Below, one piece after another: positions 6,896 through 10,243 of a DNA stretch of 64,000 nt; the first letter of the stretch is position 1, and each line of letters starts with the position of its first letter. Under the pieces are notes generated by a model. It worked only from the letters and a program-made list of their open reading frames with translations, was not told the DNA's origin and did no database searches. The DNA lies in assembly GCA_002844335.1 (NCBI GenBank), contig CP019154.1, positions 992,001 to 1,056,000 on the forward strand. The letters run 5' to 3'. A program made the translations under genes and the position numbers. The stretch comes from Haloarcula taiwanensis (lineage in GTDB: Archaea > Halobacteriota > Halobacteria > Halobacteriales > Haloarculaceae).

Positions 6896-8140
6896 GTGGA
6901 AGCATCCAGTTACGGGTGCTTATGTCCAACAACGAGGGCACGTCGGAATCTCCGGCGGATCGAGTTCTTCCAGGGCACACTGGATTCCACGTCTGAGATT
7001 ACAGACGCACGGATTTTCGACACCACGCTGCGCGATGGTGAGCAGTCACCACGTACGTCGTTCAACTACGAGGACAAACGCGAGATAGCCGCGCTGCTCG
7101 ACGAGATGGGGACCCACGTCATCGAGGCCGGGTTCCCCGTCAACTCCGACGCGGAGTTCGAGGCAGTGCGCGATATCGCTGAGTCCACGCGAGTGACGAC
7201 CTGCGGACTGGCGCGCGTGGTCGAGAAAGACATCGAGGCGGCTCTGGATTCGGGTGTGGACATGGTCCACACCTTCGTCTCGACGTCGGATGTACAGTTG
7301 CAGGATTCCATGCACGCGACCCGTCAAGAGGCGCTCGACACTGCCGTCGACTGTGTCGAGATGATCAAAGATGCGGGCGTCGAATGCATGTTCTCGCCGA
7401 TGGACGCCACGAGGACCGACGAGGACTTCCTCGTCGAAGTCATCGAGGCCACGTCCGCGGCGGGGGCGGACTGGATTAACATTCCGGACACGTGTGGGGT
7501 CGCCACGCCGCGGCGGTTCTACGACCTCATCGAAATCGTCGACGACTGCACCGACGCCTACATCGACGTGCACACGCACGACGACTTCGGGCTGGCGTCG
7601 GCCAACGCCATCTCCGGCTTCGAAGCTGGAGCCAGTCAGGCGCAGGTGTCGGTCAACGGCATCGGCGAACGCGCCGGCAACGCGGCCTACGAAGAGGTCG
7701 TGATGGCGCTGGAGTCGCTGTACGACGTCGACACCGGAATCGACACCACCCGCATCACGGAGCTGTCGCGGATCGTCGAGGAGAAATCCGACATCGGGGT
7801 GCCGGCGAACAAGCCCGTCGTCGGGCGCAACGCCTTCTCCCACGAGAGCGGCATCCACGCCGCCGGTGTCATCGAGAACTCCGACACGTTCGAGCCGGGC
7901 GTCATGACCCCCGAGATGGTCGGGGCCACGCGCGAACTCGTGCTCGGCAAGCACACCGGGGCCCACTCGGTTCGGGAGCGGCTCGTCGACGCGGGCTACG
8001 ACCCGACCGAGGCGGAGGTCAGAGAAGTGACCCGCCGCGTCAAAGAGTACGGCGCGGAGGAACAGGTCACCCTGTCGGTGCTCGAACGGTTCGCCGAGGA
8101 GATCGGCGTGACCGAGGAGAGCGAGGAGGTCCGGGCGTAG
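6896..8140 (+). CDS. leuA: 2-isopropylmalate / citramalate synthase (LeuA family), 5' end doubtful
   Basis: DRE-TIM metallolyase condensing acetyl-CoA with 2-oxoisovalerate (or pyruvate) at the entry to leucine synthesis. Visible are the catalytic TTLRDGEQSP motif, the metal-binding HTHDDFGLA, and NGIGERAGNA. The C-terminal part ends after the SHESGIHAAGV/GKHTGAHS region, so the about 120-aa LeuA regulatory domain appears to be missing. The only start in this frame is GTG 6896, which touches the TATA box and gives an Arg/Cys-rich N-terminus. ATG 6922 is at the leaderless distance and encodes an acidic N-terminus but lies in another frame. A one-base indel near 6950-6962 would join them. From IEFFQG onward the protein is secure. 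Confidence 0.88.
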   Translation: MEASSYGCLCPTTRARRNLRRIEFFQGTLDSTSEITDARIFDTTLRDGEQSPRTSFNYEDKREIAALLDEMGTHVIEAGFPVNSDAEFEAVRDIAESTRVTTCGLARVVEKDIEAALDSGVDMVHTFVSTSDVQLQDSMHATRQEALDTAVDCVEMIKDAGVECMFSPMDATRTDEDFLVEVIEATSAAGADWINIPDTCGVATPRRFYDLIEIVDDCTDAYIDVHTHDDFGLASANAISGFEAGASQAQVSVNGIGERAGNAAYEEVVMALESLYDVDTGIDTTRITELSRIVEEKSDIGVPANKPVVGRNAFSHESGIHAAGVIENSDTFEPGVMTPEMVGATRELVLGKHTGAHSVRERLVDAGYDPTEAEVREVTRRVKEYGAEEQVTLSVLERFAEEIGVTEESEEVRA

Positions 8141-8234
8141 GCCAATGACCTCGCTTCCGGCCGTCACTACGAGTGACCAGCCACCGGTGAGTACCCGGTT
8201 TCGAGCGGCTGCCCGCCAACAGCTATCACAGAAC

Positions 8235-8243
8235 GTTTATTAT
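8235..8243 (+). promoter_or_regulatory. TATA-like box of the ilvB leader transcript
   Basis: GTTTATTAT lies 26-34 bp before ATG 8269, so that ATG would be at or next to the 5' end of the mRNA. Confidence 0.5.
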
Positions 8244-8268
8244 TCGGGACGAACTGCATTCGGGTGTG

Positions 8269-8355
8269 ATGACCGCGGCTGCTGGACAACAGGTTCGAAC
8301 CCCCGCCAGCACCGCGACCGCTATTCTCGGCGTGCGTATTGTAGGGGCACTATAG
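8269..8355 (+). CDS. Candidate ilv operon leader peptide, 28 aa
   Basis: Leaderless ORF too short for usual gene calls. The first 18 codons are Ala/Thr-rich. The last ten read ILGVRIVGAL, with six branched-chain residues (Ile19, Leu20, Val22, Ile24, Val25, Leu28). The stop TAG (8353-8355) runs from the loop into the first base of the 3' arm of a 6-bp GC-rich hairpin, which a C/T-rich tract follows. ilvB begins 130 bp further on. Bacterial ilv leader peptides have this design: a run of regulatory codons whose slow translation during amino-acid shortage changes the fold of a terminator. The composition and position are visible; the regulatory role is inferred. Confidence 0.6.
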   Translation: MTAAAGQQVRTPASTATAILGVRIVGAL

Positions 8356-8373
8356 CCCCTCTCTTCACCTTTT
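8343..8373 (+). terminator. Candidate ilvB attenuator hairpin
   Basis: AGGGGC (8343-8348), loop ACTATA, GCCCCT (8355-8360), then CTCTTCACCTTTT. The stem overlaps the last three codons and the stop of the leader ORF. A ribosome stalled on the Ile24-Val25 codons would cover the 5' arm and prevent folding. A palindrome CGAATCGATTCG follows at 8384-8395. The T run is short, so terminator strength is uncertain. Confidence 0.45.
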
Positions 8374-8485
8374 CACCCCCGGCCGAATCGATTCGTCATA
8401 CCACCACAGAGTCATCAGTCATGCACGCAGCACACACATCACCGCGGTATCGACCCCGAACACGAACAGATGGAGGGCTAACACG

Positions 8486-10243
8486 ATGAGCGAACGCGCA
8501 TCCGTCCCCAAGGAAGAGGACGACACGGAGCCAGAAACCGAACCGGAACCGGTCACAACGGGCGCACAATCGGTCATCCGTGCGCTTGAAAACGCCGGGA
8601 CAGACTACGTCTTCGGCGTTCAGGGCGGCGCGATCATGCCCGTCTACGACGCGCTGTACGACTCAGACATCAACCACGTCACGATGGCCCACGAACAGGG
8701 GGCCTCACACGCGGCAGACGCGTACGGCATCGTCACCGGCGACCCCGGCGTCTGTTTCGCCACGTCCGGGCCCGGCGCGACGAACCTCGTGACCGGCATC
8801 GCCGACGCCAACATGGATTCGGACCCGGTCATCGCACTGACCGGCCAGGTCCCGACGGAGTTCGTCGGCAACGACGCCTTCCAGGAGACGGACACGGTCG
8901 GCATCACCCAGCCCATCACGAAGGAGAGCTACTTCGCCGCCGACTCCGATACAGTCGGCGACGATGTCAGCGAAGCGTTTGCGCTTGCCGATGCCGGCCG
9001 GCAGGGACCGACGCTGGTCGACCTTCCGAAGGACGTGACCCAGGGCGAGACCGAGGTCGAACCCGGCACGCCGGAGACGCCGGAGACCTACGAGGTGCCC
9101 GAGGAAGCCGACGACGAGAACGTCCAGGAAGCCGCAGAGGCACTGGCCGCTGCCGACCGCCCGGTCATCCTCTCGGGCGGCGGCGTCATCAAGGCGAACG
9201 CGTCGAGCGCGCTCCGTGAGTTCGCCACGGAGTACGAGATTCCGGTCATCACGACGATGCCCGGTATCGGCTCCTTCCCCGAAGACCACGAACTCTCGCT
9301 CGAATGGGCCGGGATGCACGGCACCGGCTACGCCAACATGGCGATTAGCAACACCGACTGCATGCTGGCTATCGGGACGCGCTTCGACGACCGCCTGACC
9401 GGGGGCGTCGACTCCTTCGCCCCCGACGCGGAGGTCATCCACGTCGACATCGACCCCGCCGAAATCAGCAAAAACGTCTACGCTGACTACCCACTCATCG
9501 GGGACGCCCGGAACGTGCTGCGGCAGCTGTTCGATGCGATGCCGCGCGCACCGGACGCCGACGAGTGGCGCGACCAGTGCCAGACCTGGAAAGACGAGTA
9601 CCCGATGGAGTACGACACGCCCGACGACGAGCCGTTGAAGCCGCAGTACGTCGTCGAGCGCTTCTCGGACGTGACACCTGACGACACCATCGTCTGTACC
9701 GGCGTCGGCCAGCACCAGATGTGGGCCTCCCAGTTCTGGGAGTACACCGAACCCCGCACGTGGGTGTCTTCGCATGGTCTCGGGACGATGGGGTACGGCG
9801 TGCCCGCCGCTATCGGCGCGAAACTCGCCGCCCCGGACCAGGAGGTCGTCTGCTTCGACGGCGACGGCTCGTTCCTGATGACTGTCCAGGGCCTTTCCGT
9901 CGCCGTTCGAGAGCAACTGGACATCACCTACGTCGTCCTCAACAATGAGGCGGTCGGGATGGTCCGGCAGTGGCAGGACGGCTTCTACGAGGGCCGCCGG
10001 ATGGCCTCGGAGTACCCGTGGATTCCGCAGTTCGACAAGCTCGCTGAGGCCTTCGGCGCACGCGGGTTCACGCTCGAATCCTACGAGAACGTCGAGGAGA
10101 CGATACAGGAAGCACGCGACTACGACGGCCCGAGCGTCATCGACGCCCATATCGACCCCGGGGAGAACGTCTTCCCGATGGTCCCCAGCGGCGGTGACAA
10201 CGGCCTGTTCGCGCTCAACGAAGACCATCTGGACATGATCTAA
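8486..10243 (+). CDS. ilvB: Acetolactate synthase large subunit
   Basis: ThDP-dependent catalytic subunit (585 aa) that makes 2-acetolactate or 2-aceto-2-hydroxybutyrate, the first common step to valine, leucine and isoleucine. Domains in order: N-terminal ThDP-pyrimidine domain with the catalytic Glu in MAHEQGASHAADAYG (about residue 70), the central domain, and the C-terminal ThDP domain with GDGSFLMT (459-466) leading to LNNEAVGMV. The first about 30 residues are a Glu/Pro-rich extension. GGAGG (8472-8476) gives a Shine-Dalgarno site 9 bp before ATG, unlike the leaderless genes around it, which fits an mRNA that starts further upstream with the leader ORF. It is followed by ilvN after 2 bp. 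Confidence 0.95.
   Translation: MSERASVPKEEDDTEPETEPEPVTTGAQSVIRALENAGTDYVFGVQGGAIMPVYDALYDSDINHVTMAHEQGASHAADAYGIVTGDPGVCFATSGPGATNLVTGIADANMDSDPVIALTGQVPTEFVGNDAFQETDTVGITQPITKESYFAADSDTVGDDVSEAFALADAGRQGPTLVDLPKDVTQGETEVEPGTPETPETYEVPEEADDENVQEAAEALAAADRPVILSGGGVIKANASSALREFATEYEIPVITTMPGIGSFPEDHELSLEWAGMHGTGYANMAISNTDCMLAIGTRFDDRLTGGVDSFAPDAEVIHVDIDPAEISKNVYADYPLIGDARNVLRQLFDAMPRAPDADEWRDQCQTWKDEYPMEYDTPDDEPLKPQYVVERFSDVTPDDTIVCTGVGQHQMWASQFWEYTEPRTWVSSHGLGTMGYGVPAAIGAKLAAPDQEVVCFDGDGSFLMTVQGLSVAVREQLDITYVVLNNEAVGMVRQWQDGFYEGRRMASEYPWIPQFDKLAEAFGARGFTLESYENVEETIQEARDYDGPSVIDAHIDPGENVFPMVPSGGDNGLFALNEDHLDMI

What the first reader, a model, noticed from the sequence alone, without database searches (positions are those of the whole stretch)
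8235..8485. Candidate ribosome-mediated attenuator (leader peptide) controlling ilvB in an archaeon
Seen: a TATA-like box (8235-8243), ATG 8269 at leaderless distance, a 28-codon ORF whose final ten codons hold six Ile/Leu/Val codons, the stop TAG on the edge of an AGGGGC/GCCCCT hairpin (8343-8360), a C/T-rich tract (8361-8373), then ilvB with its own Shine-Dalgarno. Known: bacterial ilv operons use leader peptides rich in regulated codons to control a terminator. Inferred: a ribosome stalled at Ile24-Val25 would cover the 5' arm and let transcription continue, while free termination at TAG would let the hairpin form. Leader-peptide attenuation is not a standard archaeal mechanism, so this would be new or little described.
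Basis: partly seen in the sequence, partly recalled or inferred. Interest (0 to 1): 0.85.

Follow-up and report, generated by a model that had tools for sequence, protein, structure and literature searches.

The report
Isoleucine/valine-sensing leader peptide in haloarchaea
Nearly all salt-loving archaea examined here carry, just ahead of ilvB (a key gene for making isoleucine and valine), a tiny gene that ends in isoleucine and valine codons at an RNA hairpin; a ribosome stalled there for lack of these amino acids would likely block the hairpin and switch ilvB on, a kind of control best known from bacteria.

Summary
A 28-codon ORF (8269-8355), 33 nt behind a TATA-like box, ends ...Arg-Ile-Val-Gly-Ala-Leu-stop; the stop lies in the loop of the AGGGGC/GCCCCT hairpin (8343-8360), 125 nt before ilvB. 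The architecture recurs in 189 of 190 ilvB loci of a first set (the other is a contig end) and in 17 of 21 of a second. The Val codon is GTA in 179 of 179 distinct leaders of the first set; the codon before it is Ile in 174.

The strongest new evidence is a natural codon swap: the same leader-hairpin stands before valS (valyl-tRNA synthetase) in 24 of 35 genomes read. There Ile is gone (in the four codons before GTA: 0 of 24, against 178 of 179 before ilvB) and Val takes its place. pheS has a different, Phe-rich leader (23 of 30). The codons follow the gene, as expected if the ribosome reads tRNA charging.

A second small ORF, almost without Ile/Leu/Val, overlaps the ilvB start (ATGA) and would couple its translation.

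Not shown: termination at the hairpin, translation of the leader, any response to amino acids. Best reading: ribosome-mediated attenuation in archaea, a new one-hairpin variant.

The parts
8236..8243 (+). TATA-like promoter box TTTATTAT
   Evidence: sequence; a box 29-37 nt before the leader start in the 134 of 179 distinct loci where my pattern found one
8269..8355 (+). leader ORF, 28 codons, MTAAAGQQVRTPASTATAILGVRIVGAL*, start at leaderless distance from the box (GTG 8266 in frame)
   Evidence: frame and tail conserved
8338..8343 (+). control codons ATT (Ile24) GTA (Val25)
   Evidence: GTA in 179 of 179, Ile before it in 174 of 179 distinct leaders; Ile absent from valS copies
8343..8360 (+). 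hairpin AGGGGC-ACTATA-GCCCCT with the stop codon TAG (8353-8355) in its loop and inner edge
   Evidence: stop overlaps the loop in 170 of 179
8356..8380 (+). G-free pyrimidine-rich tract (3' arm of the stem and beyond), possible termination zone
   Evidence: sequence; over the first 17 nt behind the stem 92 of 117 representatives have at most one G; TTC enriched
8421..8489 (+). second short ORF (uORF2) MHAAHTSPRYRPRTRTDGGLTR*, TGA overlaps the ilvB ATG (ATGA)
   Evidence: such an overlap in 93 of 115 representatives against 17.4 expected
8472..8477 (+). Shine-Dalgarno-like GGAGGG inside uORF2, before ilvB
   Evidence: sequence
8486..10243 (+). ilvB, acetolactate synthase large subunit, 585 aa
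   Evidence: TIGR00118 above its cut-off

Best explanation
The stretch between the promoter and ilvB encodes a leader peptide that likely senses isoleucine and valine supply by ribosome stalling and would control ilvB by transcription attenuation. The mRNA would begin at or near the leader's ATG and be translated at once as a leaderless message (inferred from the TATA spacing). When charged tRNA-Ile and tRNA-Val are plentiful the ribosome would run to the stop codon in the hairpin loop and leave, the hairpin would form, and RNA polymerase is predicted to stop in the G-free tract. When either is scarce the ribosome would wait at ATT or GTA, covering the 5' arm of the stem (the A of GTA begins that stem), and transcription would go on. 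ilvB is then predicted to be translated by termination-reinitiation from uORF2, which hardly uses branched-chain codons and so should itself be readable during the shortage. Shown by sequence: the ORF, its conservation, the codon swap in valS, the hairpin sequence, and uORF2. Inferred: translation, stalling, termination, and the response to amino acids.
For: (1) Conservation: an in-frame tail Ile-Val-Gly-(Ala/Val)-(x)-stop or a near variant at the same hairpin in 189 of 190 loci of the first set and a leader in 17 of 21 ilvB loci of a second set, one of them recognised by eye. (2) Codon-level constraint: GTA in 179 of 179 although GTA is 9 of 247 Val codons (3.6%) in eight window genes, and also in the 61 leaders where its A has no stem partner. 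My anchors contained GTA, but no locus with upstream sequence was left unanchored. Where Ile is replaced just before GTA it is by Val (GTA) in two and Leu (CTC) in one; two further leaders read Ile-Arg-Val. (3) Matched codons: the 24 valS leaders have no Ile in the four codons before GTA (ilvB 178 of 179; Fisher 2.7e-30, not corrected for relatedness) and Val two codons before GTA in 22. (4) Ile+Leu+Val 42% near the end against 11.5% in the body. (5) Stem trade-off: leaders with only four inner pairs have the three outer GTA/TAC pairs in 23 of 25, the others in 41 of 154. (6) Stop codon overlaps the loop in 170 of 179, as TAG, TAA or TGA. (7) Specificity: no comparable conserved leader by my scans before trpC, hisG, trpS/tyrS, ileS or leuS. 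(8) Haloferax background: hairpins up to 10 nt upstream of 503 termination sites, one tested hairpin terminates 59% (PMC7237163, abstract and passages); transcription-translation coupling (PMC8576121, abstract); ATGA coupling (PMC6728339, abstract).
Against: No T run like a strong terminator: TTT lies 8-20 nt behind the stem in only 30 of 117 representatives (13.0 by shuffling), TTTT in 11. No conserved antiterminator was found, only modest folding of the ORF body (mean z -1.36), so the switch would have to work by direct occlusion. The peptide body shows no coding constraint: substitutions at codon positions 1/2/3 are 104/128/125 in 48 pairs. The stem barely varies, so covariation is weak (one double change among 71 sequences; 22 of 500 shuffles reach it). 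In 9 of 179 the stop lies behind the hairpin, in one of them (L189) 29 codons after GTA. Four of the 21 loci of the second set, families f9 and f11, lack the leader; by eye ilvB there follows directly on an upstream coding frame. Three of the 17 leaders of that set have no Ile in the four codons before GTA: two of f2 (Val-Phe-Val, Val-Ser-Val) and one of f8 (Val-Val). valS lacks the leader in 11 of 35, among them all nine f4 genomes read. The paper that listed uORFs in long Haloferax 5'-UTRs has pheS but not ilvB (it examined 5'-UTRs of 150-250 nt only; PMC4983044 section 12).
Confidence: 0.68

Rival explanations
1. Translational rather than transcriptional attenuation: the leader ribosome still senses Ile/Val, but the hairpin acts on ribosomes or RNA stability (blocking passage or reinitiation at uORF2 and hence ilvB) and transcription is not stopped.
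For: Weak T run behind the hairpin; uORF2 overlaps the ilvB start in 93 of 115 representatives against 17.4 expected by shuffling, so ilvB translation looks coupled; ATGA coupling is established in Haloferax (PMC6728339, abstract).
Against: In the window the hairpin ends 60 nt before uORF2 and does not cover its start; the G-poor tract and the TTC at a near-fixed distance would have no role; the region behind the hairpin is unstructured (mean z +0.27).
Confidence: 0.2
2. Arrest peptide: the nascent ...Ile-Val-Gly-Ala chain stalls the ribosome in the presence or absence of a ligand (TnaC- or Erm-leader-like, recalled), the residues acting in the exit tunnel rather than as codons.
For: I-V-G-(A/V) is the best conserved part of the peptide; the stop codon follows closely.
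Against: The residue before Val is Val, Leu or Arg in five ilvB leaders and Phe, Arg, Gly, Leu or Val in valS; distance from Val to the stop varies from 3 to 8 codons, and 29 in one; GTA, not just Val, is fixed.
Confidence: 0.05
3. The GTAGGGGC...GCCCC inverted repeat is a protein-binding operator (DNA or RNA) and the ORF is incidental.
For: Near-invariant nucleotides GTAGGGG; mostly one copy per genome of the ATT form.
Against: Frame from the promoter-spaced ATG kept in 135 of 141; the stop codon changes type but stays in the loop in 170 of 179; codons outside the repeat change with the regulated gene; two leaders rewrite the repeat to GGGCC...GGCCC and keep Ile and GTA.
Confidence: 0.05
4. 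Chance or unselected sequence.
For: A single 28-codon ORF near a hairpin is not rare in itself (inference).
Confidence: 0.01

Closest known systems
Bacterial ribosome-mediated attenuation of ilv operons (ilvBNC of Corynebacterium, ilv operons of enterics)
   Same: Short leader ORF with cognate codons before ilvB, then a hairpin; Corynebacterium ilvBNC is reported with an upstream ORF and attenuator (PMC11857589, PMC10272879: search listings and opening lines of the abstracts only; enteric cases recalled).
   Different: Archaeal host and RNA polymerase, leaderless-type start, one hairpin seen instead of three (three in Corynebacterium by the abstract of PMC11857589), control codon at the base of the stem, stop codon in the loop, weak T tract, a second ORF nearly free of branched-chain codons before ilvB.
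Leader-peptide control of bacterial aminoacyl-tRNA synthetase genes (pheST of E. coli; recalled)
   Same: Leader with cognate codons before pheS; haloarchaeal pheS has a Phe-rich leader.
   Different: Different domain of life; a valS leader sharing the ilvB hairpin is not something I recall from bacteria (not searched).
uORFs in long 5'-UTRs of Haloferax volcanii (PMC4983044, section 12 read)
   Same: Table 2 lists a 26-residue ORF before pheS and a 23-residue ORF before a tryptophan-tRNA ligase, from transcription starts mapped by dRNA-Seq. Whether the pheS entry is the Phe-rich leader was not checked.
   Different: Listed as small proteins, without a regulatory mechanism; ilvB and valS are not in the table.
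Termination-reinitiation at ATGA overlaps (PMC6728339, abstract)
   Same: The uORF2/ilvB overlap is of this kind.
   Different: Here the upstream partner is a short ORF nearly free of the regulated amino acids.

Membership tests
Ribosome-mediated transcription attenuator (bacterial type) | Short leader ORF before the operon | tested here: met
   ORF, frame and start spacing conserved; translation itself not measured
[quoted passage not shown]
   Ile/Val before ilvB, Val without Ile before valS, Phe before pheS; exceptions in f2 and f8
Ribosome-mediated transcription attenuator (bacterial type) | Terminator hairpin followed by a U tract | tested here: inconclusive
   Hairpin stable; U tract short, TTT in 30 of 117
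Ribosome-mediated transcription attenuator (bacterial type) | Mutually exclusive antiterminator structure | tested here: inconclusive
   ORF body folds modestly (mean z -1.36); no conserved partner for the GGGGC arm noticed, no specific search made
Ribosome-mediated transcription attenuator (bacterial type) | Expression responds to charging of the cognate tRNA | not testable with these tools
   needs culture experiments
Known RNA families (Rfam 15) | Covariance-model match | tested here: not met
   0 matches up to E=1 in 8100-8500
Arrest peptide (TnaC/Erm leader type) | Fixed peptide sequence at fixed distance from the stall site | tested here: not met
   distance to stop 3-8 codons (29 in one), residue before Val varies

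The most novel reading that the evidence does not exclude
Haloarchaea own a class of codon-reading attenuators, present in this one genome before ilvB (Ile+Val), valS (Val) and pheS (Phe); at ilvB and valS a leaderless leader ORF, a single hairpin built around the control codon, usually with the stop codon in its loop, and a G-poor tract on which an archaeal termination factor (aCPSF1/FttA) or RNA polymerase itself acts replace the three-hairpin bacterial switch. It would be the first ribosome-mediated attenuation known in the Archaea, arisen independently and completed at ilvB by a second ORF nearly free of the scarce amino acids.
Probability: 0.45. Interest if true: 0.95.

Novelty: new variant of a known kind. 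Interest (0 to 1): 0.87.

Why it matters
Leader-peptide attenuation is a textbook bacterial mechanism that needs transcription and translation to be coupled. [quoted passage not shown] Haloferax volcanii is genetically tractable and an ilvB1 (HVO_1508) mutant grows again when Val, Leu and Ile are added (PMC4300041, passages), so each step can be tested.

Tried and rejected
Rfam: no match. Similar leaders before other amino-acid genes: trpC and hisG, 30 loci each, searched for short ORFs with at least two Trp or His residues; the few listed do not recur. trpS/tyrS and ileS/leuS: none by a box-plus-tail scan, which is weak, since it caught only one valS leader (L339) and missed others in the same set; none by the GTAGGG and GGGG patterns for ileS and leuS; Phe-tail control 0 of 46 (a few loci at contig ends may be misplaced). 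Covariation as proof of the stem: rejected, the stem is almost invariant. The first MAFFT alignment of 117 loci mixed loop lengths, so the model was built from 71 that I picked as fitting a six-base loop; 46 were left out. Spread beyond the order: model R1 gave 32 of 246 genomes of the phylum, all of them in this order, but it also missed many known haloarchaeal copies with short loops, so its silence elsewhere is weak; four ilvB loci of another class show no short ORF with an Ile/Leu/Val-rich end. Of 12 stretches fetched for extra matches, seven are ilvB leaders, three are orphan copies and two (L291, L292) look like chance matches. Synonymous-site test on the ORF body: no signal. A pairing of the 3' arm with the ilvB Shine-Dalgarno was considered by eye and not pursued. 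Papers seen in passages without anything on this leader: PMC5852579 (ilvB only in a table of sRNA targets), PMC13158618, PMC12482152.

Sampling: of 187 genomes with ilvB I first read 110 (30 loci, 80 regions of my choice), plus 80 named loci that partly duplicate them, reduced to 179 distinct; the divergent families f2, f8, f9 and f11 were at first left out and then read, together with other genomes of my choice. Six loci that my first pattern missed (L189 among them) were counted after reading them by eye, and L413 likewise. For valS I read the 35 best-scoring or already fetched of 87 genomes with a match; the other 52 were not read, and four loci of the PF00133 set that look like a divergent valS (L333-L336) showed no leader. 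The representatives for searches come from the 117 of 179 that are at most 80% alike. Literature silence rests on ten searches of one open-licence library; two Haloferax papers on ribosome profiling and small proteins and a review of attenuation were not held and were not read.

Full report
What is there. The window is from a Haloarcula-like genome (its ilvB protein is 97% identical to that of Haloarcula japonica and H. amylolytica; the tool's order is Halobacteriales by recall). Between the end of an upstream gene (8140) and ilvB (8486-10243; TIGR00118) stand, in order: a TATA-like box (8236-8243), an ATG 33 nt after its first base (8269; GTG 8266 in frame), a 28-codon ORF ending ILGVRIVGAL-stop (8355), a hairpin AGGGGC-ACTATA-GCCCCT (8343-8360) with the stop in its loop, a G-free stretch to 8380, and a second short ORF (8421-8489) whose TGA overlaps the ilvB ATG as ATGA.

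Conservation. I read the region before ilvB in 190 loci: 80 named ones, 30 from a search of the order and 80 stretches of my choice. One (L075) begins inside the gene; the other 189 all have the leader, six of them as variants that I recognised only by eye. They reduce to 179 distinct sequences. In all 179 the last Val codon is GTA, a codon used for 9 of 247 Val (3.6%) in eight genes of the window; my anchors contained GTA, but no locus with upstream sequence remained without one. The codon before it is ATT in 131, ATC in 43, GTA in 2, CTC in 1 and CGC in 2 (the last two have Ile one codon earlier). The stop is TAG in 135, TAA in 29, TGA in 15, and comes 3 codons from GTA in 65, 4 in 103, 6-8 in 10 and 29 in 1; it overlaps the hairpin loop in 170 and lies behind the hairpin in 9. 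With a rule that does not use the frame (TATA-like box, then first ATG), 135 of 141 starts are in frame with GTA; 38 loci could not be judged by that rule. A second set of 21 ilvB loci, chosen to include families left out before, has a leader in 17 (one, L413, by eye); three loci of family f9 and one of f11 lack it, ilvB there following, by eye, directly on the end of an upstream coding frame.

Codon meaning. Ile, Leu and Val make up 42% of the six codons before the codon next to GTA and 11.5% of the rest. A covariance model of the hairpin found second copies in several genomes that proved to stand before a valyl-tRNA synthetase gene (NF009687 and TIGR00422 are the best matches of a partial protein of 352 residues, which does not reach their whole-protein cut-offs). 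Of 35 genomes whose valS upstream region I read, 24 have it, among them the window's own genome (L337), while all nine of family f4 lack it. The leader keeps GTA-GGG-G and, in nearly all, the hairpin, but mostly reads Val-Phe-Val or Val-Arg-Val; Ile occurs in the four codons before GTA in 0 of 24, against 178 of 179 for ilvB (Fisher 2.7e-30, not corrected for relatedness), Val stands two codons before GTA in 22 of 24, and in six of these it is GTA again. This is the result expected if the codons report tRNA charging, since valS needs to sense Val only. pheS carries a different leader ending in Phe-rich runs (for example GFGFFF) in 23 of 30 loci, against 1 of 30 (trpC), 1 of 30 (hisG) and 0 of 46 (trpS, tyrS, ileS, leuS) with the same rule. 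A Haloferax dRNA-Seq paper lists a 26-residue ORF in the long 5'-UTR of pheS (PMC4983044, section 12); I did not check that it is this leader.

Structure. The hairpin is more stable than shuffles (mean z -3.11; 100 of 116 below -2), the ORF body mildly so (-1.36), the following stretch not at all (+0.27). The stem hardly varies, so classic covariation is slight; but leaders with only four inner pairs nearly always have the three outer GTA/TAC pairs (23 of 25 against 41 of 154, p 4e-10, not corrected for relatedness). The first 17 nt behind the stem have at most one G in 92 of 117 representatives, and TTC occurs 8-20 nt behind it in 76 against 29.9 by shuffling; TTT in only 30 against 13.0. Haloferax intergenic termination sites carry T stretches ending at a C, and hairpins were found up to 10 nt upstream of 503 sites (PMC7237163, abstract and passages). 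The tract is compatible with a moderate terminator, no more.

The second ORF. Of 115 representatives with a defined ilvB start, 17 have no ATG between hairpin and ilvB; in 93 the first ATG opens an ORF that ends within 12 nt of the ilvB start (81 of them as ATGA/GTGA), where shuffling gives 17.4. These peptides contain 2.2% Ile+Leu+Val, against 9.0% in the other two frames of the same DNA. Overlaps of this kind couple translation in Haloferax (PMC6728339, abstract). I read uORF2 as a coupler that can be translated while branched-chain amino acids are short; that role is inference.

Mechanism. The simplest model that uses all parts: a ribosome on the leader waits at ATT or GTA when the cognate charged tRNA is short; it then covers the 5' arm, the hairpin cannot form and transcription reaches ilvB. 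With enough amino acid it runs into the loop, ends at the stop and leaves, and the hairpin forms in front of the tract. The model needs transcription-translation coupling, reported for Haloferax (PMC8576121, abstract). Whether the hairpin ends transcription or blocks translation is not decided here.

Against it. No strong U tract; no antiterminator found; no third-position excess in the ORF body (104/128/125 substitutions at positions 1/2/3), so coding evidence rests on frame, tail and stop; one leader (L189) has its stop only 29 codons after GTA; in the second set the two f2 leaders and the f8 leader have no Ile in the four codons before GTA.

Known or new. Ten searches of an open-licence library listed no paper that I could recognise as describing leader-peptide attenuation in archaea (calls under Tried and rejected); three papers that bear on it were not held. 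Bacterial ilv attenuators are the nearest kind by working principle; no known RNA family matched.

Noticed in passing
L280 (own genome) and others of L251-L280: pheS has a Phe-rich leader (...GFGFF...) in 23 of 30 loci (20 of 30 by a stricter pattern), followed by a recurring GTGGACT/GAAACC-like stretch; structure different from the ilvB hairpin.
   Followed up: partly
L337, L339, L343, L369, L372-L379, L381-L390, L394, L400: valS leaders with the ilvB hairpin but Val-only control codons, in 24 of 35 genomes read; all nine f4 genomes read lack them.
   Followed up: yes
L281, L284, L285: Second copies of the leader (...GARLIVGV*) in three g33 genomes, with no ilvB found next to them; what they control is unknown.
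   Followed up: partly
window 8421-8489: uORF2, nearly free of Ile/Leu/Val in relatives, overlapping the ilvB start; a YRP-like motif recurs by eye.
   Followed up: partly
L423-L426: Families f9 and f11 lack the leader; by eye ilvB directly follows the end of an upstream coding frame there, so the loss may go with a change of operon.
   Followed up: partly
L411, L413: f2 genomes (small) have a leader with Val-Phe-Val or Val-Ser-Val before ilvB, like valS leaders, with a weaker hairpin.
   Followed up: no
window 8145-8489: A 114-codon frame is open across the whole leader region in another frame than the leader; it contains uORF2 and may be open by composition.
   Followed up: no
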